This document shows positions 18,661-53,348 of a stretch of DNA of 64,000 bases, in pieces. How positions within the stretch are numbered: the first letter of the stretch is position 1; each line of letters opens with the position of its first letter. The notes beneath the pieces are model-generated. The model was not told the origin of the DNA. It did not search any database and saw only the letters and a list, made by a program, of their open reading frames with translations. Made by a program: the position numbers and the translations under genes. Location: NCBI GenBank assembly GCA_023078555.1, contig CM041196.1, positions 11,178,985 through 11,242,984 of the forward strand. The letters run 5' to 3'. The stretch comes from Ulva prolifera (taxonomy: Eukaryota; Chlorophyta; Ulvophyceae; Ulvales; Ulvaceae).

Positions 18661-18692
18661 TTGTTTGTTTTCTCCCGTTCACTCTTTTGTAA
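18661..18692 (+). repeat. S-family insert S1 (partial)
   Basis: TTGTTTGTTTTCTCCCGTTC then ACTCTTTTGTAA, the 3' half of the S consensus. A GGTGCACATTG / GGTGCACTTTG pair flanks it, the right one after a ~12-nt tail, suggesting a degraded target duplication. Confidence 0.6.
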
Positions 18693-20930
18693 TACGAGCA
18701 TTCAGGTGCACTTTGTGTTGGTGCGCGGAGTGAGGGGCTCCTCGTAAACGCGCGCCTTACGCCGCGCATTCGCTTACGTATGGTATACCATACATGTATG
18801 TACACGGAAGATTGTTACAAAACCATGCTTACCATAAATGTGTGTACACGGAAGAAACTTGAAGGCTATCACATGCAACAGCTCTCGGAAAAAGCAAAAT
18901 GCATATGCCTAAACCTTACACCAACTCTACGTATACGCGCGGTGCATCACACCCCTGTTGCAAGCAGGTCGGTCAAGCGCTCCACTTCAGCCTCCATCTC
19001 AGCCCTATTGGCATGTCACATCATCCAGGTGTGTCATTGGTGCAAGCCCACAATAATTTCGCACTCCGCGCAGACTGCTGGGCGCGCGCCATCCCAGCAA
19101 ACTGCGCGGAATTTTCTCAAAAGAATTTTTTTTTCCCTGACTTGCAGGCGGACTGTAGATCGCTGCGTATAGATCCAAACGTCTTGATGTGCTGTGCTGA
19201 AGCTGCGCGGAGACAGCGGTCTGGCGGCGCTTCCGATCAGTCCGCGGCCGGCCGAATTCGAATTAAACAACGTTGTCAACACCGAGCATCTGATTCGGAT
19301 GAGATTCGGTTTTGGTGTTTGTCTTCTTCCGTGCACTTTTTTGTAAACACCGAGCATCTGAACCACGAGCGAAGGATCGACGTACTACATCGAATTTGAC
19401 ATGCCGGCTCAGAGCTTCGATTCTCTGACTGTGCAGCGCTAGGCAAGAGCCTAGGTTGGCCAACCTGGGATCTGACAGATGGGATCTGACAGATCTGCAG
19501 CTGAGTCAAACCATATTCAAGTTCACACCTGTGATTTCGAGTGCTCATCCCTTGAGATCGACCGAAAAAAGCTCCGACCTGGAGGTTGCCGGGCTCGCCG
19601 TGAGCTGTTCGACACACTCAAAAAAAAAACCATTGACGCATCTTGACCTCGCGGCTCGGGCAGAGGCAGAAAGCACGCAGGTTGCAGCACTACTTCCGCC
19701 CTGAAGACATCCATCTGCGCCCGTTCACGCTTCGAATTCATGCCAGGAACGATATCCAGGTTGTATTCCTGCGTCCGCGTCAGACCCGTGCTCCATCTCG
19801 GACACATCATCATGCGGTATCGGAATCATCCCCCCCCCCCCCCCCCACCCCCTCCCCTGGCAAGGCGCGGGCTATCACTCTATCCCACGCCGCAGCGCAG
19901 TGCGCTCTTTCGCACCTCATCGACAAATCTCAACCCAGAATGACAGCAGTGAGGCATTACCGTCCATGCATGTGCGTCGTGTCTGCGTACGCGTGCCGCT
20001 GGTAGTCACCGACCGCTTCAGCTTCAACAAGTTGTGGATGCCGCTGGCGCCGGCAGGCATGCGTGCGGGCTGCGTCGGCTGCGGGGCAAGCTGGCAGGGC
20101 AGTGCGCCACAGGATAGACGCATGTGCCGGAAAAAGATGCGGCGGCGGATCGAACCGACCACGATTTCTGAGGCGGCGGCGCGCGTGTTTCTGCCCGAAC
20201 GCTCACTCTGTCGCCTCGCCGAGCAAACGAGCTCGAAGACTGCATGCACCCTTGCGTCCGTGCCATATATATGTTCGCTTCACAAGAGATCGTGTTACAG
20301 ATCCTCATGGCCCATCTGCTTCGGCCCCTCTGCTGCTATATGGTGCGTGGGCGCTTATGTGTCGATTGTGCTCGTTCTCTGTGTAACACGGTCATCCTTT
20401 GACCTGCAAGGTCCCGATCCTGCCCTTGTCACACACGGACGACGCCCAGAGCCCCTCCGCCTCTGCTGAAGAATCCAAGCCGCAGAGACGGCCCTTGTGA
20501 ACATCCAGTCTTCAATTTGGCTGCAACAGATCCAGGCAGGTTCGTCGCATCTGCTTATGTTCACTGAGTTCGGTCTGGAGTAGCGCGCGCAGTGCCTCGA
20601 CCCCACGTCGCGACGTCTCGCGGTGGATATACACACCTCGCGCCAGCGTCACCTGGCTTTGTAGCGTTGCTAATGGTGTTGCGCAAAATCGAGCACAGTG
20701 CACGCGGCTCCCGCAGTCAGTAACCGCAGCCCAGCAACACGGAGATATCTCGATAGCCCTGATCCAGGCACGCAGGTGCAAGCTGCGGTGGCCCGCGGCA
20801 ACGATGCCATGGTGTAAGCGCACGCGAGGTTTGTCAAAGACTACTCCAGCGATGCAGTGTGCGCGGGCAAAGTTGTTGAACATGAAGAACTGTGGCTGCG
20901 GAGTGTTCTGATTAGTGCGTGTGTGGCAAT
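18693..20930. other. Non-coding stretch with one S insert and a poly-C run
   Basis: No convincing gene. Small ORFs (for example 18899-19399, 19900-20469) have no domain I recognise and overlap S2 or low-complexity sequence. A 17-base C run sits at 19830-19846. Confidence 0.45.
19294..19346 (+). mobile_element. S-family insert S2 with 15-bp target duplication
   Basis: 53 bp from TTCGGATGAGATTCGG to TTTTTTGTAA. ACACCGAGCATCTGA occurs at 19279-19293 and again at 19347-19361. A perfect flanking duplication of this length is a hallmark of retroposition. Confidence 0.85.
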
Positions 20931-20933
20931 ATT

Positions 20934-20985
20934 ACAAAAGAGTGAACGGGAGAAAACAAACACTGAAACCGAATCTCATCCGAAT
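20934..20985 (-). mobile_element. S-family insert S6 with 11-bp target duplication
   Basis: 52 bp, reverse orientation (ACAAAAGAGTGAACGGGAG ... CTCATCCGAAT). GTGGCAATATT flanks it at 20923-20933 and 20986-20996. Confidence 0.85.
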
Positions 20986-21542
20986 GTGGCAATATTGGTA
21001 CCAATCCCATGGCCGAGCCTAGGCCTGTGGCAGATGCAGCTAGATGAGACCAGGAGATTGAGGGTTCGAGCGTGCGTGTTGCACAAGTGCATGGGAGACG
21101 GGGTTGAAAAAAAATCGGCTTGAACTGATGTGATGAGCGTGCATCAAGATGTGTATTTGATGAGTTCGTGATGCCCCACCGCCAATTTGCGATATTCCCA
21201 CCCGATGTCTCCGAACCATGCGCAAACGCATCGTCGGGATCATTGCCGCCGGACGTCGACGCAGGTCTTAAGGAGCTAGCAGTGACTCTTTTGTGATCAT
21301 TTTAGCAGTGCTGCACAAGACGGTGTGTATCACGAGTGTGCCAGCTTTAACCGAGTGTCTCTCTTCTCTTTCTGTGATTTCAGGGTAAATGTATTGGTGT
21401 TGCAGGCTGCCGGTGTGGCGCTCGTTCGGCCTGCGGTCATGTTGACTTTGATTTTGCTAGATCCAACATGATCACGTGGCCGAATGATGTCTCTCCCGAA
21501 AGTCAGGCATTGGGACTTCTGACCGAGATCCATTTGTTGTGC

Positions 21543-21599
21543 TTTGTTGTTTTGGCCTTCTCCGGTTTACTCTTGTGTAATATATGTCTACATCTTTAG
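21543..21599 (+). mobile_element. S-family insert S17, diverged, 11-bp target duplication
   Basis: CCTTCTCCGGTTTACTCTTG then TGTAA matches the S core with changes and is followed by an extra ~19-nt tail. ATTTGTTGTGC flanks the whole at 21532-21542 and 21600-21610. Confidence 0.7.
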
Positions 21600-21966
21600 A
21601 TTTGTTGTGCCTGCGCGCGCCCGTTCAATCCTCCGCCGTTGCGCAAGATGCAGGGACAGGCGACGGCACAGCGATCCGCGCTCGCGTTTTTGTTTATGTT
21701 CTCCTGATTCTTTATTTAGTCTACGTTTTTTGGCTATGACGTTTTGGATATTACGTTATATTCGCCAGAGCGTCGGCGCGCCGTGGCGATTGGCCCCCGC
21801 CATCGAAGCTGCCAATGGCCGTATGGATATTGCAATTGCGCCACTGTCAGCGTCACGCGACGCCCAGTTAAATTTTGAGCATGCACGTGTTTTATCCCAT
21901 GGCTCTGGCAGCCATGTGGGTCCTCAACTTTTCGACTCTTCGTCTGGTTTGACATGCGCTGTTGTG

Positions 21967-22050
21967 GTGTGATAGTGTGTGCATGTGTAGGTATCGATTC
22001 GGATGAGTTTCGGATTCAGTGTTTGTCTTCTTACGTTCACTCATTTGTAA
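21967..22050 (+). mobile_element. S-family insert S3, long form
   Basis: A GTGTGATAGTGTGTGCATGT leader precedes GATTCGGATGAG and ends CTCATTTGTAA. The leader matches the longer copy S15 at 49917. No clear flanking duplication. Confidence 0.7.
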
Positions 22051-22154
22051 CCTATCAGCCTTGCAAACTGGATGCTCCTCTCCAGACAGAGCTCTGTCTT
22101 GAAAAATAAACAATTATTCCGGTGCTTGCCCACTGCACTTGCACGACCTTAAGG

Positions 22155-22370
22155 TCCGCCAACTCCGTATACGTATGGACCTCCGTATAACGTATGATAA
22201 TGACATTCCGTATTATTTGAATCCGTTCCACATACGGTTATACGGTGCTGATTATACGACACATACGGTGGTTATATACGGCTCTATACGGTGGTCATAT
22301 ACGGTTAAATATGGTCATATACGGTCCTATACGGTGGCCATGTACGGTCATGTACGTATGCATGAGGCGC
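22155..22370. repeat. Degenerate ATACGG repeat island, left
   Basis: CGTATACGTATGG, CATACGGTTATACGG, TATACGGTGGTCATATACGG and similar words recur every 10-20 bp for ~210 bp. No constant period. A related island lies at 23088-23260. Confidence 0.7.
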
Positions 22371-22398
22371 TTCGTACGCCTGCTTGACCACTGCACTG

Positions 22399-22455
22399 TT
22401 GATTCGGATGAGATTCGGTTTCAGTGTTTGTTTTCTCCCGTTCACTCTTTTGTAA
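22399..22455 (+). mobile_element. S-family insert S4, consensus-like, 11-bp target duplication
   Basis: 57 bp from TTGATTCGGATGAGATTCGG to CACTCTTTTGTAA. CCACTGCACTG flanks it at 22388-22398 and 22456-22466. This is the cleanest copy in the window. Confidence 0.9.
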
Positions 22456-22466
22456 CCACTGCACTG

Positions 22467-23085: not shown

Positions 23086-23087
23086 AT

Positions 23088-23260
23088 GAACATCGTATGG
23101 GTCATCAGGGGCATGTACGGCACATCATACGGCTATACGGTGCATTGTACGCCTTATACGGCAGTTTATACGCCATACGGCGACATATACGGCAATATTG
23201 GAGATTCAGATATTATACGACGTAAGAAACGTATACGACCTGAGATTATACGTTTTCGGC
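23088..23260. repeat. Degenerate ATACGG repeat island, right
   Basis: ATCATACGGCTATACGG, TTATACGGCAG, CATACGGCGACATATACGG and TATACGACG words over ~170 bp, resembling the island at 22155-22370. Confidence 0.7.
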
Positions 23261-23379
23261 GGACCTTACACGACCTTGCGCAACGCACAGGTGGCTGTGC
23301 GCCATCGTTCGGGTCTCCTGTGCGGGGCTTGCATGCATGTCTGCAGGCATGCGCTGCTGCCGAACGGAGACCCTCGAAC

Positions 23380-23669: not shown

Positions 23670-23754
23670 TGGATACAAAAGAGTCAACGGAAGAAGAAAA
23701 TCACCAAAACCGAACCCCATCCGATTCAACATCAACACATACACACACACACGC
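23670..23754 (-). mobile_element. S-family insert S7, long form with CA repeat, 11-bp target duplication
   Basis: 85 bp; includes the S core in reverse and a CAACATCAACACATACACAC stretch corresponding to the TG-rich 5' part of long copies. AGCGCATAAAC flanks it at 23659-23669 and 23755-23765. Confidence 0.85.
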
Positions 23755-23779
23755 AGCGCATAAACCGCTTTTGCGAATG

Positions 23780-23810
23780 TCTTCTCCCATTCACTCTTCT
23801 GTAATATCAT
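23780..23810 (+). mobile_element. S-family insert S8, 31 bp, 13-bp target duplication
   Basis: Only TCTTCTCCCATTCACTCTTC, TGTAA and a TATCAT tail. GCTTTTGCGAATG flanks it at 23767-23779 and 23811-23823. It lies two bases after the right duplication of S7. Confidence 0.8.
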
Positions 23811-30331: not shown

Positions 30332-31349
30332 CAGCTGCCTCAGCTACAGCTACAAGAGTTGCAACAGAAACCTTGATGACGTCAGCTACCATTCCTGTTG
30401 CCATTATACATTTCTTTGAGGCATTTGCAGCTGGCTGGCGTGGACAACAGCCCAGGCATGCTCGTTAGGCTCGGCTCCCGCACACTTGTCTGCCCAGGCA
30501 AGTGAGGCAAGGTTCAATTATTATTTTCAAAAACTAGGTGGTGTATCATTGTGTATGAGTGTTAGGTGTGAGTGTGTCGCTTGTCAGATTTTTAATGTGT
30601 TCCCAAAAGCGTGCCTTGCGTGATAGAACATGGCTTGTAAGAAATTGAGCAGCACACCCCTAATGCTGGCTAAATTATTCTTCTCGTCTGGCACTGAACT
30701 GCAGCTGATTGCTGATTTCTGGCTGCTTTGCGTTCAGCCCTGATTATTACGCAACAGCTGAGCAGGTCTCTGCAGTGGATTATTGCCAACGTCCGAAGAC
30801 ACTGCAGTGCTGGCAAGCAAGCACACCCACACTACGCTAAAAAAACATTTTGAATCAAAGCTTGCGTTGCTGCTCAGCTGTAGGCCAGCCAAGGCAGCTC
30901 GCAGAGACACGCTTTTGGCGAAAGGCACTTTGTTTTGCAGCGGGCTGCCCCACATCGTAGGCATGCATGCATCGCAGCGCTGCCTCTTTGAACGCTTTTC
31001 AAGCTCTTTGTTGTGGAACGCCAGACAGCAGTCGTTCGTCTTCACGGTGCATGGCTGGGCAGTTGCGGTGACTGCTTGTGGCAGGCGTCATATCCGCCTA
31101 CAGGCGGTCGTCATATGCGCATAACACGCCCACCCACGTGGGGTGGCGTGACCTGAGGGAGGTGTACCTAAAAATGACCATCATTGTGGTGTGCGGGTGT
31201 TCGCTGATTCAGAGGCGCTCCTCTTGCCGTGAGTGTCTCCGCGCACGCCTCCGTAACACATCTGCCACGTGTTTCGGCAGTCAATCCTTCTCCTGCAGGA
31301 CGACACGCCATGTGCCGTGCACGCTAATCGTGCTGCATGTGTCATGCAC

Positions 31350-31424
31350 GCTGTGGTTTGGATGAGATTTTGTTTTGGTTTTAGTCTGCTTCCGTGCACT
31401 CTTTTGTTGGTAGTGCTGCTTGTG
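31350..31424 (+). mobile_element. S-family insert S10 with 11-bp target duplication
   Basis: 75 bp: TTTGGATGAGATTTTG ... CCGTGCACTCTTTTGTTGG plus a ~20-nt tail. GTGTCATGCAC flanks it at 31339-31349 and 31425-31435. Confidence 0.75.
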
Positions 31425-31490: not shown

Positions 31491-31535
31491 ACATTACAAA
31501 AAAATGAACGGAGAAAACAAACACTGAAACCGCAT
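31491..31535 (-). mobile_element. S-family insert S9 with 9-bp target duplication
   Basis: 45 bp reverse copy (ACAAAAAAATGAACGGAG ... AACCGCAT). CTCAACAGT flanks it at 31482-31490 and 31536-31544. Confidence 0.8.
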
Positions 31536-32194
31536 CTCAACAGTTGTCGAGGGCGGGGTTGTAGTGGTGGAGCACATACGCTCTCTGCTGATACCAGAGA
31601 GATTGTCATGCCATTCAGTGAAGCAGCACACAAATGCTTCCTGTTCTTGTTCCCGCAGTCATGAGGCATCGCAACCAAGTGCAACCCCAGCATGAAATGT
31701 CAGCACACACACAGCCACTGTGAGTGGCTGTGGCTGTGGCTGTGGCACCCACGTCACTCTCAATGACGCAATGACAGCACAGGGAGTGCACTGCACTGAG
31801 GCAACAACTGGCTCTCCCACCAACTGCCCCACCCAACGCAGTGAACATGCAGTGAACGTGAACATGCAGTGAACATGCGGTTGACACTTCATGTGTCTGA
31901 GAATGGAGTGTGCCAGGCATGGGCAACAGTTTCAGGGACAAAGACAGATAAAGTCATGCGAATGCAGAGCTAGCTGCCTCTCCAATATATTCTTGCATCT
32001 TATCCTTGCATATGAGCACACCATGTGAGCCAGGCTGTCAGCTCTGTTTCTGTTGGTGGTGGTTGCCTCCGTGGAAGTTGCCTGTTGCCTGCGTTTGCCT
32101 GTGGAAGTATATGTTTCAAATGCAAGGATCATGCATCAGAGGAAAGGACAACACAAGTATGAATCCCCGTACATGGCAAGGTCATCCATCATCT

Positions 32195-32284
32195 TAGTTA
32201 TTTACAGAAGGGTGGCACGGGGAAGACAAGCACCATAACCGAATCTCCGAATCAACAGCAACAAATGCACACACTACAACAGCA
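32195..32284 (-). mobile_element. S-family insert S11, long form, 12-bp target duplication
   Basis: 90 bp reverse copy including AATCAACAGCAACAAATGC. CATCCATCATCT flanks it at 32183-32194 and 32285-32296. Confidence 0.8.
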
Positions 32285-33175
32285 CATCCATCATCTGACC
32301 AAGGATATCTGCGTCTGCAGTCTGCATGGTGACACTTTGGGACCCATTCAGACCTGGCTCCCCTCATTTGCAGCCACATGCATGCAAGGCAGCTGCATGC
32401 TAGTATACATTGGACAGAGTGAGGGTCATCACACCATCCCATGGTAACTGCAGCTCTTGCTGCATGCCACTGCAGGGTACCCGTGCAGCGGATTTGTTGC
32501 CAGGTTTGAAATGCAACCTGGTGGTGCACCACAAGTCTAACTGCCACCCTTTGAGCACAGTCTAGCTGCCACCCTGTGAGCATAGTCATGGCAGTCAGTG
32601 CCATTCCCAGTGCCCTTGACACCCATGACATGCATGCATGCATGCGACTGCCTTGACACACCTCCTCCCATTGACAGCCTGTGACTACCTCCTGGAACAT
32701 GACAACGGCAGCCCTCTCATTCTGCCCCCTGAGAAGGTGGTCCCCAAATTGTAGCACATGTACAGATTTCATGTGCATGTGAAAGGGCAATCCAGTGACC
32801 TTTGCTGCTCATACACGTGCACATGGACCTGCACACATGCTGAAGCAGTAGGCTGCTGGAAACCCCTCAGACAGGCCCGGCCTGAGCAACCCACACCGCC
32901 GATCACACCCTCCTCCTGTGTGCCTCCTGATGTGCCCCCCCAGTGCCCCGCCAGTACGATCGTCTGAGGGGGGCTTCCAGGTTGATTACCCCTTCGACAG
33001 CTGTGGTCCTGTGCACTCACGGGGTTGTCAATGTCCAATATGATACAGCTCAGCAAATGCAGATTTACTTGACTTTCCCCCGGTGGCGTTAGTGGGTGTC
33101 CAGAGGCACTTTGTGCACCACAGGGTGCATGCATGCAGGTGTTCGAGTGACAGGCAGGCCCTCCTGGCGACGTTG

Positions 33176-36100
33176 ATGGCCAGCCCACGGCGTTGTGGAC
33201 CCTGGCGTACGGCCAGCAGCATGCTGCTGGCCGTGTTGCTGGCAACCTGCGCATTCTCCGGCGGTGTGCTCTCTAACAACCACCGATTTCCGAGACAACA
33301 AAGTGTTGCAGTAGCTTCTGCTGTCCCATGTTACACGATCTGACGGTGGGGCCTGACGAATAGCCCCCACTATATGATTGCCGCTGCCGCCTGATGCATA
33401 GGCGCACAAACATGTACCTTCTTAAGTTTGTGGCCTGTCACATCTGGTGCTGGTTGCCGGTGCTGGTTGCTGGTGTCAGGAGTGTTGTCAGATACTGAGG
33501 CCCAGTGTGAGCCGTACGGTCAGCACATGTGACACGCAACTTCGCAGCTGTCCACGTCCTCATCAGGGTTCAGCTCGATACATTCAGAATGTCTGCTCTT
33601 TTGTAAAGAGGTGGTCCTTAACAAGTGTGTAGGAGAGGCTACGACGAAGAGCTCCACCCCGCCGGCAACAGGCAAGACCGGCACTGGCACCGTCCAGGCG
33701 ACACAGTCCTCCACGACGACAGTAACGGTGACGGACAAGGGCTCCAAGGGCTCCGTCCCGGTACCGGTGGTCTTCCCATGCGAGCACCTGCAGCTCGGGG
33801 TGTGTGAGAAGTGCGAACACGGCCAGGTACCCCCCCCCCCCCCCCCCCCCCCCCCTGTTTCCGCAGGCTTGAAAGTGAAGTAGGAACCTGTCCGATCCCA
33901 GACCTAGAACAGCAGTAGCCTGCATTGCCATGACGAGGCAGTGGCAGCTGCCAATGCGCTGCTGTATACTACAGAAGAGGCTCAAGCATCGTGGTTGAAT
34001 GGCTGACACGTCGGGCATGGTGCTGCAGGTTGTTGTCCGCTCTGGCACCTGTGACGATGGCAACAAGTGCACGCAGCACGACACCTGCAAGGCAGACGGC
34101 TCCTGCAGCGGCACCCCCGTAGCCTGCTCAGCATGCAGCACGTGCAACCCTGCCACAGGGGTATGCGGCGGCGGCTGCCCCCACCCCCAGGTCTGCGGCA
34201 AAGACGGCAAGTGTTCCGGCACCGCTCCTCCGGCCCCTGCGGCCGGCTGCGGTGCACGTGTGTGCATCAACGGCGTTTGTGACAACTTTGAGTCATGTGG
34301 GGCCTGCGAGGAGTGCCGGGATAACGCATGCGTGTCGTCATGTGGGGCTGGCCAGACGTGCCAGGGCGGGAAGTGTGTTTCTGCGCCAGTCCCAACCCCC
34401 CCAGCCACCCCCGCTCCAGCCCTTGGAGGACAGTGCTCAGTCGTCATTTGCACAAACGGCGTCTGCTCTGGGAATGCTTGCCCGACGTGCCAAGTCTGCT
34501 CGGGCGGAGTGTGTGTGCCGAGGACTTGCGCCGCCGGAAGGGTGTGCGTGAATGATGTGTGCCAGGCTACCACGACCCCGGTGCCCACCACACCCCCTGC
34601 CACAACACCCCCTCCGGCCACCGTTTCTCCTCCAGCCACCTGCGGAGCTGTCATTTGCACCAACGGTGTCTGCACTGGGGGCACGTGCCCAACCTGCCAA
34701 GTCTGCTCAGGGGGCTCATGTGTGCCGAGGACCTGTGCCGCCGGGCGGGTTTGTGTGAACGATGTGTGTCAGGTGGTTACGACACCTTTGCAGCCCACCC
34801 CTCCTGCTCCAACAGTTCCGACCCCAGTGCCATCCCCAACCCCCCCCGCGATTGTGCCACCCCCAGTCACACCCCCTCCAGCCACTGTTTCCCCTCCAGC
34901 CACCTGCGGAGCTGTCATTTGCACCAACGGCGTCTGCACTGGAGGCACGTGCCCAACCTGCCAAGTCTGCTCTGGGGGGACCTGTGTGCCGAGGACTTGT
35001 GCCGCCGGGCGGGTATGTGTGAACGATGTGTGTGAGGTGGTATCGACACCCGTGCCGCCGGCCCCCTCCACACCTGCCGTTCCAGTCGTCCCGCCCTCAA
35101 CACCTCCCGTCGTTCCACCCCCGGCCCCGGTCCCATCCCCTCCAACCTCCTGCGGAGCCATCATTTGCCGCAATGGTGTCTGTACCGGAGCATGTGCCGC
35201 CTGTGAGGACTGCTTGAACGGAGTGTGTGTACCCTGTGCCGCCGGCACGGACTGCGTGAATGATGTGTGTGTGGGAAGCCCAACACCACTTCCCGTCCCT
35301 CCGCCCCCAGTGCCGCCCCCAGTGGCGCCACCAGTGACACCTCCGGTGGTACCCCCCGTGCCACCCACGCCGGACCCCGTGCCGCCGCCCACGTCGGACC
35401 CCGTGCCGCCGCCCACGCCGGACCCCGTGCCGCCGCCCACGCCGGACCCCGTGCCGCCGCCCACGCCGGACCCCGTGCCGCCGCCCACGCCGGACCCCGT
35501 GCCGCCGCCCACGCCGGACCCCGTGCCGCCGCCCACGCCGGACCCCGTGCCGCCGCCCACGCCGGACCCCGTGCCGCCGCCCCCGCCCGACCCCGTGGCG
35601 CCGCCCCCGCCCGACCCCGTTGCGCCACCCCCGCCCGCCCCCGTGGCGCCACCCCCGCCCGCCCCCGTGGCGCCACCCCCGCCCGCCCCCGTGGCGCCAC
35701 CCCCGCCCGCCCCCGTGGCGCCACCCCCTCCCGACCCCGTTGCGCCACCCCCTCCCGACCCCGTTGCGCCACCCCCTCCCGACCCCGTTGCGCCACCCCC
35801 TCCCGACCCCGTTGCGCCACCCCCTCCCGATCCCGTGGCGCCACCCCCGCCCGCCCCCGTGGCGCCACCCCCGCCCGACCCCGTTGCGCCACCCCCTCCC
35901 GACCCCGTTGCGCCACCCCCTCCCGACCCCGTTGCGCCACCCCCTCCCGACCCCGTTGCGCCACCCCCTCCCGATCCCGTGGCGCCACCCCCGCCCGCCC
36001 CCGTGGCGCCACCCCCGCCCGACCCCGTTGCGCCACCCCCTCCCGACCCCGTTGCGCCACCCCCTCCCGACCCCGTTGCGCCACCCCCTCCCGACCCCGT

Positions 36101-37596
36101 TGCGCCACCCCCTCCCGATCCCGTGGCGCCACCCCCTCCCGACCCCGTTGCGCCACCCCCTCCCGACCCCGTTGCGCCGCCCCCACCCCCTCCCGACCCG
36201 GTGGCGCCGCCCCCACCCCCTCCCGACCCCGTGGCGCCACCCCCACCCCCACCTGACCCCGTGGCGCCGCCCCCACCCCCACCTGACCCCGTGGCGCCGC
36301 CCCCATCCCCACCTGACCCCGTGGCGCCGCCCCCACCCCCACCTGACCCCGTGGCGCCGCCCCCACCCCCACCTGACCCCGTGGCGCCGCCCCCACCCCC
36401 ACCTGACCCCGTGGCGCCGCCCCCACCCCCACCTGACCCGGTGGCGCCGCCCCCACCCCCACCTGACCCCGTGGCGCCGCCCCCACCCCCACCTGACCCC
36501 GTGGCGCCGGCGCCGCCCCCACCCCCACCTGATCCGATGGCGCCGCCCCCACCCCCACCAGATATGCCACCCCCACCTGACCCGATGATGCCGCCTCCAC
36601 CTCCTCCTGACGCACCCCCACCACCTCCTCCAGACTCACCCCCACCACCTTCTCCAGACTCACCACCTCCTCCCCCTCCCGATACGCCGCCTCCCCCACC
36701 TCCTGACGCACCCCCACCACCTCCTCCTGACTCACCGCCCCCACCACCGCCGGACTTGCCGCCTCCTCCCCCTCCCGACATGCCGCCACCTCCGCCAGAG
36801 TCGCCACCCCCACCTCCTCCTCCTCCACCTTTCACTGCCTGCCTATCTGACGCCGCCTGCGGCCAATGCGAGACATGCACGGAAGGTTTCTGCATCCCCG
36901 ACTGCAACGAATGCCAGCAATGCGTGAACGACGTGTGCGAGGTGCGCCCTCTCCTTGTCAACACCCTGTACCCCGCACCAACCCAACTCAACGTATCAAG
37001 ACCATGGTCATGAGGGTGTATGGTGAATGCATGTAGACCCACACTGTGCCAGTGACAAGGGTTGTAGTAATTGTCATGGCCCCCTCGCGGTGGCAGAGGT
37101 TGCGCTGCAGCATGTCGTAACCCTGGGTGGGTAGCTTCTGCGGTAGTCTACACTGGCAGCATAGACGAGTCATACAACACCTCATACAACACCGTCTCTC
37201 ATGCCTCTCTGTTTACAGTTTATACCCTGTGTACAGGCAAACGCGACCGCGGTGTCCAATCCGTGCACTCGCCCTACTGGTGGAATGTGCGCCTGCTCGG
37301 CCACCGGGACATGCGATTTCTGCAGCCAAGATTGCGCCAACGATGATCCAACCGTCCAACCAGACCTGTTCCGCGCCTGCGCTGAGATCGAATCAAGCCC
37401 TGCGAGCTCCAACTGTGGTAACAGGTGCACGGAGCTGTGTGGCTTGAAGTGCGGCAGGACGTTTAACTTTCCCAACAACGCCTGCAGTAATTTCATGGGC
37501 GGGAACTGCATGGGAGTGACATCGGTGTTTGAACCGACAGAAACCTTCACCGGCCCATGCTGTTCATGCAACTTTGAGTGCTCCCTGATACCGTAG
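33176..37596 (+). CDS. Gene 1: secreted Cys-rich, proline-rich glycoprotein (cell wall/extracellular matrix type)
   Basis: Four exons: 33176-33263 (or -33302; both GT sites keep phase 1), 33633-33826, 34029-36941, 37237-37596; ~1184 residues. Exon 1 gives a signal peptide ([14 protein letters not shown]). Exon 2 is Ser/Thr-rich and ends with a CEKCEHGQ motif. Exon 3 starts with a CDDGNKCT...DTC...C motif, then Cys-rich modules ([20 protein letters not shown] ... [12 protein letters not shown]) joined by Pro/Thr linkers, then a ~400-residue array of [16 protein letters not shown] and longer [10 protein letters not shown] units, then [13 protein letters not shown]. Exon 4 is a 119-residue Cys-rich C-terminal domain ([21 protein letters not shown]). 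The plan resembles hydroxyproline-rich wall and matrix glycoproteins of volvocine algae; I do not recognise the C-terminal domain as a named family. Gene 2 at 53620 is a paralogue with the same splice phases, the best evidence for the model. Confidence 0.78.
33830..33855 (+). repeat. 26-base poly-C run just inside a 5' splice site (gene 1)
   Basis: Intron 2 starts GTA and then runs straight into 26 C. The paralogous intron of gene 2 has 21 C at the same place (54493-54513). If the intron were retained, the run would encode a polyproline tract in frame. Confidence 0.85.
35370..36560 (+). repeat. Proline-repeat coding minisatellite of gene 1
   Basis: 24-bp units first (PPPTPDPV, then PPPPDPVA or PPPPAPVA), changing to 30-bp units ([10 protein letters not shown]) from about 36180. 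Runs of identical units imply expansion by slippage or unequal exchange. The frame stays open throughout, unlike in gene 2. Confidence 0.85.
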
Positions 37597-40271: not shown

Positions 40272-40288
40272 AACAAGACTGCCAGAGA

Positions 40289-41802: not shown

Positions 41803-43533
41803 TGTTCATGTAATACAGCATCAACCAGTGAACTTTCTACCTCAGTTAGTACATGTGATTTGCTGTACATGCACTCACAGAGCTGGCGAAGAGTCGTCAT
41901 CGTTATCGCGAGCCACAGGCAGCTGCATGCCGGCCCAGCAGTCGGGCCTCCAGGTTATCCCCTCTGACATGTTCGCAAAAGCCGAGATCCCGGTGGCCGT
42001 GGCGGCGTCCATCAGCGACATGCACGACACAACCGTTTGATCAGAGATGCGAGTGTGAGGACTGGTGAAAGCTTGGGGTCAAAGTCATGCATGTGCGCAG
42101 ATACCCACGCGCTGTCGGCACCTTCTCACGCGCTTCCTTGCATGTGCACAGCGCAGGCCGCCTACTACACGAGACGAGGTGGCACGCAGCATGGCAGGCA
42201 AAGCGCCGCAGCACGCTTTGCGTCAGATCTGTCCAGGTGACGCATGTTTATTTTTTTTTTATGGACATTGTAGGTGAGAGGGCTCTGAATGTGGAGCAGA
42301 GCTGCAGAGACCGGGCCTGGAAAAACGGTTGGGAACACAGCACGAGCTTCAGCAGCACGCTCGATACCTGCCTCTGCCACACACGGCCGGCCAAAGTGCG
42401 TGCAGCAGTGTCACTCAGACGTACCCCTGCACGTCGACGTCTCGCCGCCTTGAACCTGTAACACACAAGCACTCCGTGCATCACCCGCGCACCCGGCCCC
42501 GTCGCGCGGGATCCCTTATGACTAGCCCGGCCGGACTGCCCGGGCCATGGCCATGGACATGCCATGTGGCAGCCCGGATCGAGTCACAGAAGATGGACCG
42601 CGAGCACATGGAGACGTGGGCGCGGCTGTAGTGTGATCGCCGACGTGTGTATGTGGCTGTTTATTCGGATGAGAGTCTTTTCTGGTGCTCGGGTTACAAA
42701 AGAGTGAACGGGAGAAAACAAACACTGAAACCGAATCTAGTGCTTGTCTCCTCCCGTTTACTCTTTTGTAAACACGGCGACATGTGGCCACATTCTACAG
42801 AGTTCGCAGTGCACCATGGCCAAATGCAAGGCCCTGTAAAGTGAGTACAGCAAACCTGGATCCACAAGCCATGTGTGGCGATGCAACACGATGCCTAATT
42901 ATGTGCCCGTCGAAATTTGACAGCCCGGGACAAACGGGGGCCATCATGCCGCAGCCTGCGTTAACTGCCCAAGCACCACTGGCCAGCGGGACGGCCGTAC
43001 GAAGAGCTCCGAGCCTCGCCGAGATCGTATGCTAAATTTAACGTGCTGATCACGCAAGGCTGTTCAACTTCCCCACAGCTAGGTGCATGCAGAACGTGGT
43101 TTGTGTATAGAACGTGAAAATGGCGGATCCAATCCGCGGGCACGCCCGGACGGAAGTTGTTTTACAAAAGAGTGGACGGAGGTGCTCAGATCCCTGGACG
43201 TCTCGTGCATCTCCCGAGGATCACTCGACACATTTGCTGTAGATCTGAGTCTTCAATTAGCTTCTACATACGTATGTATCTGGTGTGGACGTGAGCGTGG
43301 CAGATCACCCGTGAAATATTCCTGCGATGTGTTTGTTGCATGTTGGTGCGCAGATCTGCAACGCAGAACCTGAGGGGGATGTTCGACGCGACGAGGCGCA
43401 CCGCCCTCGAGGCCGTGCCGGCCACATCTAGCCACACCACGGTGAATTCCATCCGGAACGAGGTGCCGCGGAGCGGAATCGAGATATCGCGGTATGATCA
43501 CACATGTGCAACGTGAGAACCGGAGCCTCAATC
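41803..43533. other. Non-coding stretch between the Penelope-like remnant and element D
   Basis: No gene recognised. Contains nested S copies (42629-42773) and a 3'-end S remnant near 43163-43185 (TTTTACAAAAGAGTGGACGG). Confidence 0.5.
42629..42773 (+). mobile_element. S-family insert S12 interrupted by an antisense S copy
   Basis: The outer + strand long-form copy starts TGTAGTGTGATCG and ends TTTACTCTTTTGTAA at 42773. It is split after GGTGCTCGG by a minus-strand copy (~42694-42738, TTACAAAAGAGTGAACGGG ... CCGAATCT). GTGCT near both inner junctions may be a short target duplication. The two copies form a long imperfect hairpin. Confidence 0.75.
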
Positions 43534-44258: not shown

Positions 44259-47200
44259 TCATGACCATTTTGCCTCCGGAAACTTCCCACCCGAACCCAC
44301 AACTTCGAAATTTCCATGCCTCCATTCTGTTGGATGCCCTCCCCTGTCTTCGTAGTATCCGGGTGGCAGCAACGGCTTGAACTTCTCGCCCGCGTCCGCA
44401 GCCACAATCTGCGCGGTGATGTAAAGGCGCCTGGTAGACTTTGTGATAGAACTCTGATTCTTGGGAGGTGCGCCGTCGTCGCCTGCTTCGTTCCTCTTTT
44501 CGCATTCCGAGTGCATGACTTCGTCGTAGCTCTTCGAGAGCAGCAAAGCCTGGGAGTCTGGGGGCTGATCTAGAGTCCAGGCTCTCGCTACACCTTTATA
44601 TGTGCCGACCTGCATCTCGGCTGGCTGGTGCAGGTCCGGAGTCGTATTTCCGAGCGGCAGGAACTGCTCGCCGACCAAGCACAACCATCGCCGGGGGTCG
44701 TTGAAGGCCATCTCCCTTCGGAAAACAGCCTCCCATGGTGCGCCATCATCAGCATTTGCAGCTTGGAAGTAGTCTGCCAGCATGTCGTCGTGAATCGCTT
44801 GTGCATGCTTCGTCTGTGCCTGCTTGTACCTTTCGAACTTGACGTCCGTAAGGAATTGAAACTTGGATGACTTGACCGCTCGCTTTCTTGCGCGGCGCAA
44901 GGCTTGCAGTTCCGCGTCTGCGTTCTGCCTGCCGTGTGCGTCGCCGGCAGGCAATCTGCGCTTTGCTGCCAGCAGCTTGTCTTTGTACTTGTCGAAAGAT
45001 TCAGCCACGCCGGGGATCGTGATTCCCAGCTGCTGCTCGGCGGCAGTCAGGATGGTGTTGTACTCCTCGATCGGTGTCACTCGCGGAGTGAGCATCGCGA
45101 TGGCAGCTCCGTGATGAATCGGGGCATTGTCCTGGCTCAGGCCAAAGGGCACATGAATGCTGTGCCATGTGATGCTCACTTCGTCTGACATGCAGTCGTA
45201 GTACTCCTTGCATTTTTGGTCCCACACCTCTCTTGAGCCTGGGTCGCCCAACTGCATACCGAGCCATCGCTTGATGCACCACGGCAGCACGTAGAACAGC
45301 ATCATCATCTTGTACTCTGTTCCGTTGATCGCCCGTGCGATCATGTTGCCTGCTTTCGACTTTGCACTGTTCTGCAAACACCACTAAGTCTGAGTCTTCA
45401 ATGCAGGCATCCCAAGATGTATGTGGAGAAAGAGGGAGTCAAGAGTGTAATATGGAGTGCATCACTGAACACAGGTAATGTCCATGCACCTTCTGTGTGC
45501 TGTATTGAGTCCAGCTGCCTCTCTGCAGTGTTGGACACAAGCATTGCATACTCAGACTGTTCATGGATGTGTGCTGTTGACTGCAGCTGCCTCTCTGCAG
45601 TGTTGGACACAAGCATTGCATACTCAGACTGTTCATGGATGTGTGCTGTTGACTGCAGCTGCCTCTCTGCAGTGTTGCACCCAAGCATTGCATACTCAGA
45701 CTGTTCATGGATGTGTGCTGTTGACTGCAGCTGCCTCTCTGCAGTGTTGCACCCAAGCATTGCATACTCAGACTGTTCATGGATGTGTGCTGTTGACTGC
45801 AGCTGCCTCTCTGCAGTGTTGGACACAAGCATTGCATACTCAGACTGTTCATGGATGTGTGCTGTTGACTGCAGCTGCCTCTCTGCAGTGTTGCACCCAA
45901 GCATTGCATACTCAGACTGTTCATGGATGTGTGCTGTTGACTGCAGCTGCCTCTCTGCAGTGTTGCACCCAAGCATTGCATACTCAGACTGTTCATGGAT
46001 GTGTGCTGTTGACTGCAGCTGCCTCTCTGCAGTGTTGCACCCAAGCATTGCATACTCAGACTGTTCATGGATGTGTGCTGTTGACTGCAGCTGCCTCTCT
46101 GCAGTGTTGCACCCAAGCATTGCATACTCAGACTGTTCATGGATGTGTGCTGTTGACTGCAGCTGCCTCTCTGCAGTGTTGCACCCAAGCATTGCATACT
46201 CAGACTGTTCATGGATGTGTGCTGTTGACTGCAGCTGCCTCTCTGCAGTGTTGCACCCAAGCATTGCATACACTTCATGGTGTGTGACTTCATTGTGTCT
46301 ATCACGTGCAGTTGCCACAAGGCCAGTCAAGTCAGGGACGCAGTGCACAAGCTGATAACTAAGACGGTAGTGATCACACAGTATACTAGTTGCTCATGTT
46401 TGCATGCTCAATGGCGCCGCGGGGTCCCCCCACTGTGTTCATTGCATAGGCCAGGGCATAAGACCACGCAGCATGACTGTGTCGTTAGACAAGTTATACA
46501 AATAGTGTGCCATGTTGATGTTGATGCTGCCGTTCTGCCCTCCTTCGGCATGAAGGCCCATGGTGTAAGTAAGAAAGGTGGCCCTGCGTTTCACCTCGAT
46601 GTATTGTTTGTCTTGTGCAACAGTATGCTTGTAGCTGTGGAAGTGGACGGACGTAGCCACAAAAATGCTCGCAACCGAAAGCATGACACTTTGAAAGAGA
46701 ACAAGCTCAGTCGATGTGGTGTAAGATTGTTTCGAATTGATCTGAGCCAGTCAATACCAGATCAACTGTACGAGATAGAGCATATGATTAAAGGCCTAGT
46801 GTAATTCATACCAGGAAACCCTCATCTGTGAACTTCTGCGGGACAAGCTCACTCTGGTCCACAGGGAAGATCTTGGCAGCCTCCTGTGGAGAGGCCTTCC
46901 TGAATTTCTGGACAGCTTTCTCGCTCGAGCCGTAGTGCATCTTCATGATGGCCAGCTTGGTCTCATCATCAATCTTGTCTGTCCAACGTTGCAGCCCAGC
47001 TTGCACGCTGTCCGCTGCCTTGCTGCCGTTGGCAGCAGTGACCAGAAGGGTCCCTGTCACCGCTGAGGCAAAGATGTAGAACATGACTTTTGGGGCCATG
47101 CCAACCTGCACCATGGCTGCATCATGAAAACAATGTGTCAACGGTGAGCAGCAGCAGCAGGCAGTGGTGTCACTCACCGTTTTCATCAGTAGGTTGTAGC

Positions 47201-49115: not shown

Positions 49116-49915
49116 AATCGTGGTGCCCCGCATGCATACGCCGACGCCGGTGGCACGCTTCGACCATCCGGCTCGCCGTTACGACAGCACTCGTATAAAT
49201 GCGAAATCTGCCCAGCCACAATGTACACTTGTGTAATCCCAACTGCACTGCGCCATTGCGGTGCTGCTTTGAATATTCGCTGCCAGCGTGCATGCTTAGA
49301 GCCGTTCCGCGTGGCTCGGGTCTCAATCGCTACGTCCTGCTAGCAGCAGCGCTGCTGACACACATGTACACGGCGCCGTTTCGGAACACGATCTGGTCTG
49401 AAGGCCCGCTCATCAGGCTACAGTCCTCAGCACTACCAACACGACCTGGCAGCAGGTACTTCCCCTTCATCTGTCTGGGATTGATGAAGTATGGATGCAG
49501 CATGAGCTAGCTTGCAGTTGATGTGCGCGCCCACAGACCGCTGAAATGTGCGCTGCCGCTTCGCGGCTTTATGTGTGTGACTGTTGATACGGAAGAAAAT
49601 ATTTTGCTGTGTATTGTGTATGCTCGATTAGTGGCCTTCAACGTATCCTTGCAAAGCCCGGGCCCGGTCTCGCCGGGCCGGCCGGAGCACATGCATATGG
49701 GTGTGCACCTCTGCGTAGGCATGCCGTGGCCGCTGCGATTGCGTTGCCTGAATATCTCGATGAGGTCATCTAGGTATGCACACCTGTGAGTTCATGTGGT
49801 TGGGGCATGGTAAAGCTGAACTGAGGCATCGCTATCCTGTCTTTGGTATGGCCCGTTCATGTCCCTGCGACGGGCCTGGAGGACGCGATCCTGCCGGACT
49901 GAGGTGTGAGTGTGG

Positions 49916-50003
49916 TTGTAGTGTGATCGTGTGTGTGTGTATGTTGCTGTTGGTTCGGAATGGATTCGGTGTTGGTGTTTGTCGCTCTTTGAAATTTTGT
50001 AAT
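49916..50003 (+). mobile_element. S-family insert S15, longest form
   Basis: TTGTAGTGTGATCG, a TG microsatellite, ATGTTGCTGTTGGTTCGG, then a diverged core ending GAAATTTTGTAA. It shares its 5' end with S12, so this may be close to full length. A further 3'-end fragment (TTCCCGTTCACTCTTCTGCAA) follows at about 50037. Confidence 0.7.
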
Positions 50004-50091
50004 ACCCATGCTGCAGCTGGTGGTCTGTATTTGTCTATTCCCGTTCACTCTTCTGCAAGCCCGCGCTGGCTGCCCGTATACTATATAAATA

Positions 50092-50158
50092 TTACAAACG
50101 AGTGAACGAGAGAAAACAAGCACTGAAACCGAATCTCATCCGAATCAACAGCAACACA
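50092..50158 (-). mobile_element. S-family insert S16
   Basis: Reverse copy, TTACAAACGAGTGAACGAG ... CATCCGAATCAACAGCAACA. No flanking duplication recognised. Confidence 0.75.
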
Positions 50159-50401
50159 TCGTGCTGCTCTGGTTCTGCTGCCGTTACTGTCACGCAACTT
50201 GTGCACACACGCACAGCTTACCTAGATGCGTCGAAAGACGCAGCACGGGATTCAGGAAACAAATGACGACTTCCCGTGAAAGACGCAGCACGGGGCTGAT
50301 CGCCGCACAGTCCTTCGACGGTGGGCCGCCGGCCGGCGTTCGTGGCCACCGGTGCCACGCCACTGCGTTGCAGCTGTACAAGAGTACATATGTTTACAAA
50401 A

Positions 50402-50442
50402 GTTTGCGAACGGCCGGCTGCTCAGTCCGGCCGTTCGCAAAC
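50402..50442. repeat. Perfect hairpin, 16-bp arms
   Basis: GTTTGCGAACGGCCGG / CCGGCCGTTCGCAAAC around a 9-nt loop. Very GC-rich; function unknown. Confidence 0.8.
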
Positions 50443-51126
50443 ATGTGCGCTCCGATGCCTGTATCTGGGTCATTTTAATCCGGTCCTCAGGTTTCGATCC
50501 GTCGCTTGTGCGACTGTCACTGCCGACTGCCACGTAGGCACCGGTTGAAGCGCGCCGTGCGTGCAACTGTGATACCTCGGAGCTTTGAACACTTTTTGAA
50601 GTAACATGACAAAAGCTATTACTTGCTTGCGTCAAAGCTACATGGCGAAGGCTGAAACGAGCGGAACGTCTGTTTCCGGGGCGTTTGCAACTGCGCCGGC
50701 TTTGGTCACCAACCTGTTGTCGCCGACGACTCCAGCTCTGAGCAGATGACCGTCTCTGCGTTCGCAACTGGACATTCTATCATCATACAATGCTAGAGCT
50801 TTGTAAAGAATGCGTGGTTGAGACCGCGTGAGCGTAGCAGCGTCAGGCGCACTCTGCAGCCTTGTTAACGCAGTGATATCCTCACAACAATACCGAAGCT
50901 CGCTACAGCACGGCAGTAAAACCAAGTGGCTCACATTGAAGCAAACAGCGTCGCGTTATGCGTGACTGTATGTGCCCTGGCATCGGGAGATGACAGACAG
51001 CACTCGCAACGCAATGCATTTACCCATACAGCATGCTCCCGCAAAGTGATAATAACGTTGACATTGTGTCTGCTTGATAAAGTCGGCAGGGCTGTGGCAA
51101 CGGTCGGGCTTGTTATAGACAGACGT

Positions 51127-51154
51127 GCCTTGGCGATACCTCCATCGCCAAGGC
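51127..51154. repeat. Perfect hairpin, 11-bp arms
   Basis: GCCTTGGCGAT / ATCGCCAAGGC around ACCTCC. No gene context. Confidence 0.65.
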
Positions 51155-51829
51155 TACAGAACCGCTGCAATCCCAACTTCTTCACGCTATTATACAGATG
51201 GAGATTGTATCTACATTGAGTTCTCACAGTTGCAGATGCGTGCTGCCTCCGGCGCGCAGCGTTACGGCCGTAACAATCGAGCGGCATGACGGCAGCTCTC
51301 AGCGTGCACGCAGCATCGTTAGCCAGGTTGTTTACGCTAAAACCTCACTGATGCTAAAACTTCACGCCTTCGAACCTATTAGCACTGTCGGGGGCAAGTA
51401 GCGCGCAAATCCGGTGGTGGCACCAGTCTGGCTGCATAGGCTCCATGCATGATGAATATTGCGGTGCTGACGACGTGAGCCATGAGACCAGTCGAGACTT
51501 GAGGACCGGTTACTCAAGACCTGTATCTGTGCGTAATACTTGTGGCCCGAGAGAGTGAACCGGGCTGCGAACGGGAGACATGCATGTGTCGCAGCAGCCG
51601 TAAATATGTGCATGGCTTTCGGCAGCAATGTGTAGATTGTAAGGAGGATGCCGCGACATGCCGGCGAGTTCAAAAAAAAAAATGCACAACAGCGCATCGA
51701 CATCGCAGCCAGCCCGATTTTCTTATTTGGAGCATCGAAACCGCGAGGTTGCGACCTCACTAGTGTGAGCCTTAAGCTTGGCTCGCTGCTTTGTTGACCG
51801 GTCCAGGGGTTTGCGAGCCCGGTTTGACG

Positions 51830-52822
51830 CTGCTCTCTAAAGTTACCTCCCTCAGCCTGACCCACGTGACCGAAACCATCATCCCTCGTGCTTTACGAAT
51901 TGCTCCTGACCGCATGCGTCAGCGACGCGGCACAACCAATGCATGGACACCTCCCCCGCCGCAGGCGCACCGGCGTACGCCCCGCCACGCTGCAACGAAG
52001 CCCGTCGCTGCCTGCGATATGGAAACTGGACCGCGAATGCCATGGTAATGATTAGTGCTTTGCTTGAAGGCTGTTCATAAGTGCCGAGCAACCTGGGTAG
52101 ACTTCCCGGTGTTACCTAGCGCATGCAGCTTGACATGATCTGCTAGCGAAGAACGGAGAATTTAAGCTTGGTTGAATAAATGAACTTATTGTGATTTAGT
52201 GTTTCCGGTGAACAAGCCAGCGCTGGGCAACGGCAAGAATCTTTCACGCGAACGTCAACAATAGCCAGCCAGCCAACTGCTCCCCGCCTGAAACGTTTCG
52301 TTAAACAGCTGGCAGCGGATCAGACGATTGAACATGGACGAAGAGCATTTGCGATTGCTGATTTCTGGCTGCTTTGCGTTCAGCCCTGATTATTACGCAA
52401 CAGCTGAGCAGGTCTCTGCAGTGGATTATTGCCAACGTCCGAAGACACTGCAGTGCTGGCAAGCAAGCACACCCACACTACGCTAAAAAAACATTTTGAA
52501 TCAAAGCTTGCGTTGCTGCTCAGCTGTAGGCCAGCCAAGGCAGCTCGCAGAGACACGCTTTTGGCGAAAGGCACTTCGTTTGCAGCGGGCTGCCCCACAT
52601 CGTAGGCATGCATGCATCGCAGCGCTGCCTCTTTGAACGCTTTTCAAGCTCTTTGTTGTGGAACGCCAGACAGCAGTCGTTCGTCTTCACGGTGCATGGC
52701 TGGGCAGTTGCGGTGACTGCTCGTGGCAGGCGTCATATCCGCCTACAGGCGGTCGTCATATGCGCATAACACGCCCACCCACGTGGGGTGGCGTGACCTG
52801 AGGGAGGTATACCTAAAACCAT
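51830..52822. mobile_element. DNA transposon B2, internally deleted relative of B1
   Basis: The left arm (51830-52350) matches 29118-29638 and the right arm (~52353-52822) matches ~30707-31178, nearly base for base. The ~1.07 kb in between, including the Gln-rich ORF, is replaced by two bases. The inverted ends are as in B1. No clear target duplication (only TTGAC shared by the flanks). Confidence 0.8.
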
Positions 52823-53031
52823 GTTGACTATCACTCTCACAAACACTCATGCTGCTGCACGACGGTCATAGAGCGTATGTGTTTGTGAACCGTTTCGCCT
52901 TCCCTGTGCAGCTGCAGCTGTGGCCACATGTCCCGTCTGTTCGATCAGCCTAGGCCTGTTGTCCATCGGAAACGTGACGCCATCCATGGCACTGCTCGTG
53001 GCTCGTGGTTGACGTTTGCCTGAGCTCAGTT

Positions 53032-53167
53032 GAGCCAGATGCGGTCAAGCCGCCGCCCCGCTCTGTGGATACAGTATACTACGTAATATATATATGGACG
53101 TTGGCCAGTTGGCCTCCGGAGCTACTGTGTCCACAGAGCGGGGCGGCGGCGTGACCGCATCTGGCTC
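53032..53167. repeat. 136-bp foldback element, ~45-bp arms
   Basis: GAGCCAGATGCGGTCAAGCC ... CTGTGGATACAGTA pairs with its inverse with two mismatches around an AT-rich centre (ACTACGTAATATATATATGG). No flanking duplication seen. It resembles a miniature inverted-repeat element. Confidence 0.75.
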
Positions 53168-53295
53168 GCATGCAGAGGCTGGCTCATATGCATATGCAGA
53201 GCATGGATCCGAACTCTCACTAAATGCGCATCATCTGCTCGGCAGGACCCGTGGCGGTCTGGTATCCTTGTGATCAGATGATGTTATCAGATGAT

Positions 53296-53348
53296 ACTAC
53301 AAAAGAGTGAACGGGTGAAGACAGACACCAAAACGAATCTCATCCGAC
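53296..53348 (-). mobile_element. S-family insert S14 with 9-bp target duplication
   Basis: Reverse copy ACAAAAGAGTGAACGGGTG ... AATCTCATCCGAC. TCAGATGAT occurs at 53287-53295 and 53349-53357. The region is rich in ATCAGATGAT words, so the duplication is less decisive than elsewhere. Confidence 0.75.

What the first reader, a model, noticed from the sequence alone, without database searches (positions are those of the whole stretch)
18661..53348. Swarm of 30-90 bp retroposed inserts (S family) sharing the 3' end TTCACTCTTTTGTAA
About 17 copies in both orientations between 18.6 and 53.4 kb. At least ten carry 8-15 bp flanking duplications (for example CCACTGCACTG around 22399-22455, ACACCGAGCATCTGA around 19294-19346, CATCCATCATCT around 32195-32284). 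They share the 3' end but vary at the 5' end, as expected of target-primed reverse transcription of a very short RNA. The longest forms (49916, 42629) add a TG repeat and a GTAGTGTGATCG start. Mobile units this small and dense are unusual, and no internal pol III box is evident.
Basis: partly seen in the sequence, partly recalled or inferred. Interest (0 to 1): 0.85.

Follow-up and report, generated by a model that had tools for sequence, protein, structure and literature searches.

The report
Tiny truncated copies of a LINE
The swarm of short inserts is the debris of a long jumping element (a LINE) that copies itself from its tail end and usually stops after a few dozen bases, so it is a known kind of process with unusually short products.

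Summary
A profile finds 17 copies in the window (E<1e-3), all between 18.66 and 53.35 kb, none in the reversed window. Ten of 17 have flanking duplications against 0.6 expected, filler of 0-20 nt allowed. The 57-bp copy at 22399-22455 has a clean empty site elsewhere, 157 of 160 bases identical.

The inserts are target-primed retroposition products, but not of a very short RNA: they are 5'-truncated copies of a LINE. Longer copies run through a ~106-nt 3' UTR into an open frame of 1199-1201 codons; the window's longest copy begins in its last codons (49876). Genome-wide, 24-mers at -24, -51, -131 and -1780 from the 3' end count 1122, 721, 359 and 40. Among 73 copies not chosen by length the median is 61 bp. 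The protein carries motifs of a restriction-like-endonuclease (RLE) LINE; no zinc finger was seen in its first 297 residues, but 334 residues, with most of the RT, were not read.

Unusual are the shortness (down to 21-26 bp), the microhomology at 5' joints, and dispersed insertion by an RLE-type element.

The parts
18659..18692 (+). S copy, 34 bp; possible duplication 18653-18664 / 18705-18716 (12 bp, 1 mismatch, 12-nt filler)
19286..19346 (+). S copy, ~53-61 bp; 15-bp duplication ACACCGAGCATCTGA 19279-19293 / 19347-19361
20932..20985 (-). S copy, 54 bp; 10-bp duplication 20985-20994 / 20922-20931
21956..22050 (+). S copy, 95 bp; no duplication found
22399..22455 (+). S copy, 57 bp; 11-bp duplication CCACTGCACTG 22388-22398 / 22456-22466; empty site at C1:862299-862458 (L045), 157 of 160 identical, no gaps
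23674..23770 (-). S copy, ~98 bp; 9-bp duplication, 3-nt filler
23768..23804 (+). S copy, ~27-37 bp; 13-bp duplication GCTTTTGCGAATG, 6-nt filler; lies against the copy 23674-23770
31348..31407 (+). older S copy, ~62 bp; 11-bp duplication with 15-nt filler
31494..31540 (-). S copy, 47 bp; 9-bp duplication, 3-nt filler
32202..32286 (-). S copy, 85 bp; 12-bp duplication 32183-32194 / 32285-32296 (CATCCATCATCT), 7-nt filler
42608..42771 (+). older, longer S copy (3' UTR) split by the inserted copy 42694-42739; found as two profile hits, 42608-42689 and 42736-42771
42694..42739 (-). S copy inserted into the copy 42608-42771; imperfect 9-bp duplication (tctggtgct 42681-42689 / tctagtgct 42736-42744) read by eye; automatic score only 5
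49876..50002 (+). longest S copy; begins with the last codons and stop of the LINE frame (LEDAILPD*), then the 3' UTR; no duplication found
50024..50058 (+). short S copy, ~35 bp, no duplication found
50092..50158 (-). S copy, 67 bp, no duplication found
53298..53352 (-). S copy, 56 bp; 21-bp duplication with 1 mismatch (inside a TCATCTGA-rich repeat, so weaker evidence)
1..17410 (+). head-to-tail array of a sister RLE-type LINE (1191-codon frames at 9345-12920 and 13615-17190); 11 3' ends CCT(T/G)TGTAACTACA on the + strand; related to the S LINE, not its source
3170..3304 (-). empty-site paralogue (86%, no gap at the joint) of a 26-bp S insert at C1:1634963 (L056)

Best explanation
The S family is the set of severely 5'-truncated copies of one LINE (non-LTR retrotransposon), most likely of the restriction-like-endonuclease type, the 'S-LINE'. 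Shown: copies share its 3' terminus; longer copies are collinear with its 3' UTR and then its reading frame; many insertions carry flanking duplications, variable short filler at the 3' joint and microhomology at the 5' joint; empty sites exist. Inferred: the S-LINE protein nicks scattered sites, primes at the end of its RNA (...UUUUGUAA), usually stops after 20-100 nt, and the short cDNA is joined to upstream target DNA by microhomology-assisted end joining; rarely it runs on to 0.5-4 kb.
For: Continuity with a LINE: L021 holds a 340-codon open frame ending ...LEDAILPD* directly upstream of the S 3' UTR; 121 matches to that C-terminus (119 of 1469 candidates scored), 10 of them in open frames of 1199-1201 codons; one such locus read at both ends, the C-terminal 568 residues with YLDD and an N-terminal 297 residues. 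24-mers (<=1 mismatch) at -24, -51, -131, -1780: 1122, 721, 359, 40. Insertion marks: duplications scoring >=8 in 56 of 115 copies against 0.45 expected with 0-4 nt filler, 71 of 115 against 2.0 with 0-20 nt filler; median length 14. Overlap of >=2 nt at 24 of 56 5' joints against 8.9 expected, p 1.5e-6; >=1 nt at 34 of 56 against 24.7, p 0.009. Empty sites: window 22399-22455 against L045, and a 26-bp insert in L056 against window 3170-3304. RLE motifs in order in both S-LINE and sister: CCHC, RH, GD...D, KxxxF/Y, compared with PMC5678591 (passages); the sister's RT is nearest to R2 proteins among solved structures.
Against: 44 of 115 copies have no duplication by the wider test. RT is inferred from YLDD and 37% identity to the sister LINE. 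The RLE has GD where PD is usual and CxC where CX2-3C is usual. 24-mer counts are lowered upstream by subfamily divergence, so the decline is approximate. The copies are not all independent: at least 4 of the 56 are segmental duplicates. 17 of 56 5' joints show a gap, not an overlap.
Confidence: 0.9

Rival explanations
1. S is an independent short element (SINE-like or a very short RNA) mobilised in trans by a LINE that shares its 3' end.
For: Most copies are short: 54 of 73 copies not chosen by length are <=100 bp, and of the 34 of these with a duplication 20 start 43-71 nt from the 3' end, which could hint at a preferred short form.
Against: 5' ends are scattered with no common start (21 to 71 nt and beyond). 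Longer copies continue into LINE coding sequence with no junction. No tRNA or Rfam match in the window.
Confidence: 0.06
2. The short copies were once longer LINE copies shortened by deletion, or were copied by DNA-level events such as gene conversion or segmental duplication.
For: At least 4 of the 56 copies with duplications repeat another copy with the same joint (three flagged; L009 and L010 share their upstream sequence).
Against: Duplications abut or lie within a few nt of the short copies; the two clean empty sites contain only the target; deletion would not leave a duplication next to a truncated 5' end.
Confidence: 0.03
3. The parent LINE is an ordinary APE-type (L1/RTE) LINE rather than an RLE type.
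For: Insertion is dispersed and with duplications, as in APE-type LINEs; the genome holds many other RT matches (150 scored of 452 candidates), not typed here. 334 residues of the S-LINE were not seen.
Against: No endonuclease match in the 297 N-terminal residues; CCHC-RH-GD..D-KxxxF in order after YLDD; 37% identity to a sister whose RT is nearest to R2.
Confidence: 0.1

Closest known systems
RLE-encoding LINEs: R2, R4/Dong, NeSL, CRE, HERO, Utopia
   Same: Single long frame, CCHC knuckle, RH, D...D and a displaced catalytic K at the C-terminus; defined 3' end; 5' truncation (PMC5678591, PMC4640811, PMC7650587: passages read)
   Different: Dispersed targets with 8-31 bp duplications, no zinc finger in the first 297 residues, very short copies. 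HERO is said to hold many non-specific families (PMC4640811); clade not tested here
Non-site-specific R2-like elements of Blattella (BLAG)
   Same: R2-like without the rDNA target (PMC7650587, title and passages)
   Different: Insect; very short copies are not mentioned in the passages I read
Zepp / ZeppL LINEs of green algae
   Same: Tandem arrays made mostly of 3' ends through nested insertion (PMC8226300, passages); like the sister array in this window
   Different: L1 clade; Zepp ends in poly(A) (PMC3747384, table). The S-LINE is dispersed and ends in TTTTGTAA
Green-algal RTEX LINEs with (CTTGTAA)n tails; UnaL2 with TGTAA repeats
   Same: 3' end built on TGTAA (PMC3747384, passages)
   Different: Other clades; there a repeated tail, here a single terminal TTTTGTAA
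SINEX elements of Chlamydomonas
   Same: Short, share 3' ends with LINEs (PMC3747384, passages and table)
   Different: Distinct elements; the S copies are only LINE 3' ends

Membership tests
LINE, 5'-truncated copies | Common 3' end and variable 5' end collinear with an autonomous element | tested here: met
LINE, 5'-truncated copies | Flanking target-site duplications of variable length | tested here: met
   71 of 115 against 2.0 expected; two clean empty sites
LINE, 5'-truncated copies | Reverse transcriptase in the autonomous copy | tested here: inconclusive
   YLDD and homology to a sister with RVT_1; no Pfam match in the pieces read; not among the RT matches listed; most of the RT not read
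RLE-type LINE | CCHC knuckle followed by RH, (P)D...D and KX2KY | tested here: met
   All in order in S-LINE and sister, with PD->GD, CxC and KxxxF variants; nuclease activity not tested
RLE-type LINE | Position in an RT phylogeny with R2/NeSL/CRE/HERO | not tested
   S-LINE RT not read; the sister's best solved-structure match is R2Tg, E 1.1e-5
RLE-type LINE | N-terminal zinc finger(s) | tested here: inconclusive
   None in the first 297 residues of the S-LINE; one starting at residue 5 of the sister; 334 residues not seen
SINE | Fixed 5' end | tested here: not met
   5' ends scattered
SINE | RNA polymerase III promoter | not tested
   Only tRNA and Rfam scans of the window were run, both empty

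The most novel reading that the evidence does not exclude
This LINE's normal product is a 'micro-insertion': reverse transcription is routinely captured after 20-70 nt by microhomology-guided joining, with a second stop zone near 125-165 nt and few stops between (0 of 34 copies not chosen by length; 5 of 67 in the wider set), so that the machine mainly scatters short cassettes ending in UGUAA, the poly(A) signal of derived green algae, through the genome.
Probability: 0.2. Interest if true: 0.6.

Novelty: new variant of a known kind. Interest (0 to 1): 0.42.

Why it matters
5' truncation of LINEs is common and its cause is unclear (PMC2666801, passages). A family with over a thousand 3' ends, mostly very short copies, many with readable joints and some with empty sites, is a good natural data set for that question. 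Inserts this small are probably missed by repeat annotation and add short duplications and UGUAA signals to a compact genome (inference). It also points to an RLE-type LINE that inserts at dispersed sites.

Tried and rejected
SINE reading: rejected because copies continue into LINE coding sequence and share no 5' end. Single-sequence structure model of the sister LINE: mean pLDDT 37.2, not used. Profile search of solved structures with the two C-terminal halves: three weak matches to proline- and alanine-rich stretches. Pfam on eight other window frames: nothing at E<=0.001. My first alignment under-extended some diverged copies across the TG repeat; a looser one over-extended copies whose 5' end is fixed by a duplication, so lengths use the first alignment where there is a duplication and the longer value elsewhere. 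Target-site consensus: only a weak preference for A at the joint (32 of 55), not pursued. Organism: not tested; 'green alga' is an inference from UGUAA and base composition.
Full report
Checking the observation. The 15-mer TTCACTCTTTTGTAA occurs 19 times in the window with up to 3 mismatches, against 0.49 in shuffles. A profile made from copies outside the window finds 17 copies at E<1e-3, from 18659 to 53352, on both strands; the best match in the reversed window has E 5.8. Two of the 17 hits (42608-42689 and 42736-42771) are halves of one split copy. Allowing 0-20 nt of filler after the 3' end, 10 of the 17 have a flanking duplication scoring >=8; swapping flanks among the copies gives 0.59. 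With 0-4 nt of filler it is 6 of 17. In the whole genome (88.9 Mb, 44 contigs) the 15-mer occurs 1201 times exactly (reversed pattern 0) and 1904 times with up to one mismatch (reversed pattern 1).

What the copies are. Most of the 30 loci fetched with an 89-nt query continue upstream with a shared sequence reading ...GAG GAC GCG ATC CTG CCG GAC TGA, then a 3' UTR of about 106 nt; a few (for example L028, L033) stop earlier. In L021 this is the end of a 340-codon open frame. A genome search with that frame gives 121 matches (119 of 1469 candidates scored); ten lie in uninterrupted frames of 1199 or 1201 codons, 96-97% identical over the matched part. One of these (C1:1592296-1595892) was read in two pieces: the C-terminal 568 residues, starting just before a YLDD motif and followed by the S 3' end, and an N-terminal 297 residues. 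The window's own longest copy, at 49876, starts inside the last codons of this frame. The S family is therefore the 3' end of a LINE.

How the copies were made. From 300 kb of fetched loci and the window I found 155 hits, 135 after removing overlaps of loci, 115 with an alignment score >=18 (20 dropped). With 0-4 nt filler, 56 of 115 have a duplication scoring >=8 against 0.45 when flanks are swapped; with 0-20 nt filler, 71 of 115 against 2.0. So 44 of 115 have none that I can detect. At least 4 of the 56 are segmental duplicates of others (three flagged; L009 and L010 share their upstream sequence). Duplication length is 8-31, median 14. Between TGTAA and the duplication, 51 of 67 copies (score >=9) have 0-4 nt of varying sequence and the rest 5-19 nt, as if untemplated bases were added at the start of synthesis (inference). 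At the 5' joint, 24 of 56 copies have an overlap of 2 or more nt against 8.9 expected from chance extension on both sides (p 1.5e-6), and 34 of 56 an overlap of 1 or more against 24.7 (p 0.009). Seventeen of the 56 have a gap rather than an overlap.

Empty sites. Joining the flanks of each of 109 testable copies (of 115) and searching the fetched sequence gave nine with a match across the joint at another place. Two are clean. The 57-bp copy at window 22399-22455 has an uninterrupted counterpart at C1:862299-862458 (L045): 157 of 160 bases identical, no gap, one CCACTGCACTG. A 26-bp insert at C1:1634963 (L056) with a 13-bp duplication has a counterpart in the window at 3170-3304 (86%, no gap at the joint). 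The other seven are weaker: lower identity, gaps near the joint, or flanks that are themselves S copies. One of these, window 42694-42739, is an S copy inserted in an older S copy 42608-42771.

How short. A set not chosen by length (exact 15-mer hits in C1:1-1.76 Mb, bystander copies, and the window; 73 of the 115) has median 61 nt; 54 of 73 are <=100 nt and 5 are >200 nt. Among the 34 of these with a duplication (0-4 nt filler), where the 5' end is fixed best, the median is 58 nt: 5 start below 43, 20 at 43-71, none at 72-124, 6 at 125-165 and 3 beyond 200 (one of the 34 is a segmental duplicate). The gap at 72-124 is not absolute: in the wider set, 5 of 67 copies with a duplication start there. 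One search gave a slightly different first estimate before the alignment was revised. Genome-wide counts of matched 24-mers (<=1 mismatch) are 1122 at -24, 721 at -51, 359 at -131 and 40 at -1780 (reversed controls 0). These fall partly from subfamily divergence. The shortest copies with duplications are 21-26 nt.

What kind of LINE. Both the S-LINE and its sister have, in order after the YxDD motif, a CCHC knuckle, RH, GD...D and KxxxF/Y. PMC5678591 (passages) describes the RLE of LINEs by a CCHC knuckle, RH, a PD-(D/E) core and a catalytic K in KX2KY; here PD is GD and the first cysteines are CxC. The sister LINE, arrayed in the first 17.4 kb of the window, has RVT_1 (E 9e-11), its RT is nearest among solved structures to R2 proteins (E 1.1e-5; human LINE-1 at 0.6), and its C-terminal half is 37% identical to the S-LINE. 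Its frame starts with a C2H2-like finger, while the first 297 residues of the S-LINE have none. That the lack of fingers accounts for dispersed insertion is an inference. An AlphaFold model of the sister failed (pLDDT 37).

Mechanism proposed. The S-LINE protein nicks scattered sites and primes at the RNA end UUUUGUAA; the cDNA is usually joined to upstream target DNA after 20-100 nt. For ZfL2-2 in DT40 cells, loss of Ku70 gives longer insertions, so end joining can create truncation; the same paper finds template jumping a likely alternative (PMC2666801, passages). Strong early end joining, template jumping or a poorly processive RT would all fit here; I cannot separate them. UGUAA is the poly(A) signal of late-branching chlorophytes (PMC1868727, abstract), so sense copies may supply such a signal; that the host is such an alga was not tested.

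Comparison and novelty. LINE truncation, microhomology at 5' joints and RLE LINEs are all known. PMC4640811 (passages) says four RLE clades are mostly target-specific while HERO holds many non-specific families. PMC8226300 (passages) names L1 and Dualen LINEs in Chlamydomonas relatives. Searches requiring 'restriction-like endonuclease' together with 'green algae' (and two more terms) or with 'Chlamydomonas' and 'non-LTR retrotransposon' found no paper, nor did the 15-mer; one search for ultra-short LINE insertions gave four papers, none with the word 'ultra-short'. The library lacks most subscription papers, so this is not proof of absence. I rate it a new variant of a known kind.

Noticed in passing
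window 1-17410: Head-to-tail array of a sister RLE-type LINE; 11 3' ends on the + strand, CCT(T/G)TGTAACTACA, 8 of 11 running on into TACATACA; full units near 4.27 kb, with truncated units, 96-99.9% identical. It looks like nested insertion at a (TACA)n site or at its own 3' end, as in Zepp arrays but in an RLE-type element.
   Followed up: partly
G000 genome-wide, e.g. C1:4491261-4491368: The sister's 3' terminal 24-mer occurs 821 times (<=1 mismatch; first 100 places seen); some lie only 40-44 or 72-78 bp apart in the same orientation, so this LINE also seems to make very short copies.
   Followed up: partly
S-LINE and sister 3' ends: Two LINEs 37% identical in their C-terminal halves share the terminus TCYTTTGTAA, suggesting a conserved start for reverse transcription; UGUAA is also the algal poly(A) signal.
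   Followed up: partly
L056, C1:1634938-1634963: A 26-bp insert with a 13-bp duplication and 6 bp of microhomology: about 20 bp of net new element sequence.
   Followed up: yes
window 33999-37013 and 55685-60875: Very long proline-rich repeat frames on strongly C-skewed strands, like hydroxyproline-rich cell-wall proteins (recalled); no Pfam match for four frames tried there.
   Followed up: partly
window 45494-46271: 72-bp tandem repeat, 10.8 copies, 98% matches, open in several frames on both strands.
   Followed up: no
L052, after the S-LINE 3' end at C1:1592187: The intact S-LINE copy is followed within 15 nt by a run of about 55 A; whether it is a tail or an old tract is unclear.
   Followed up: no
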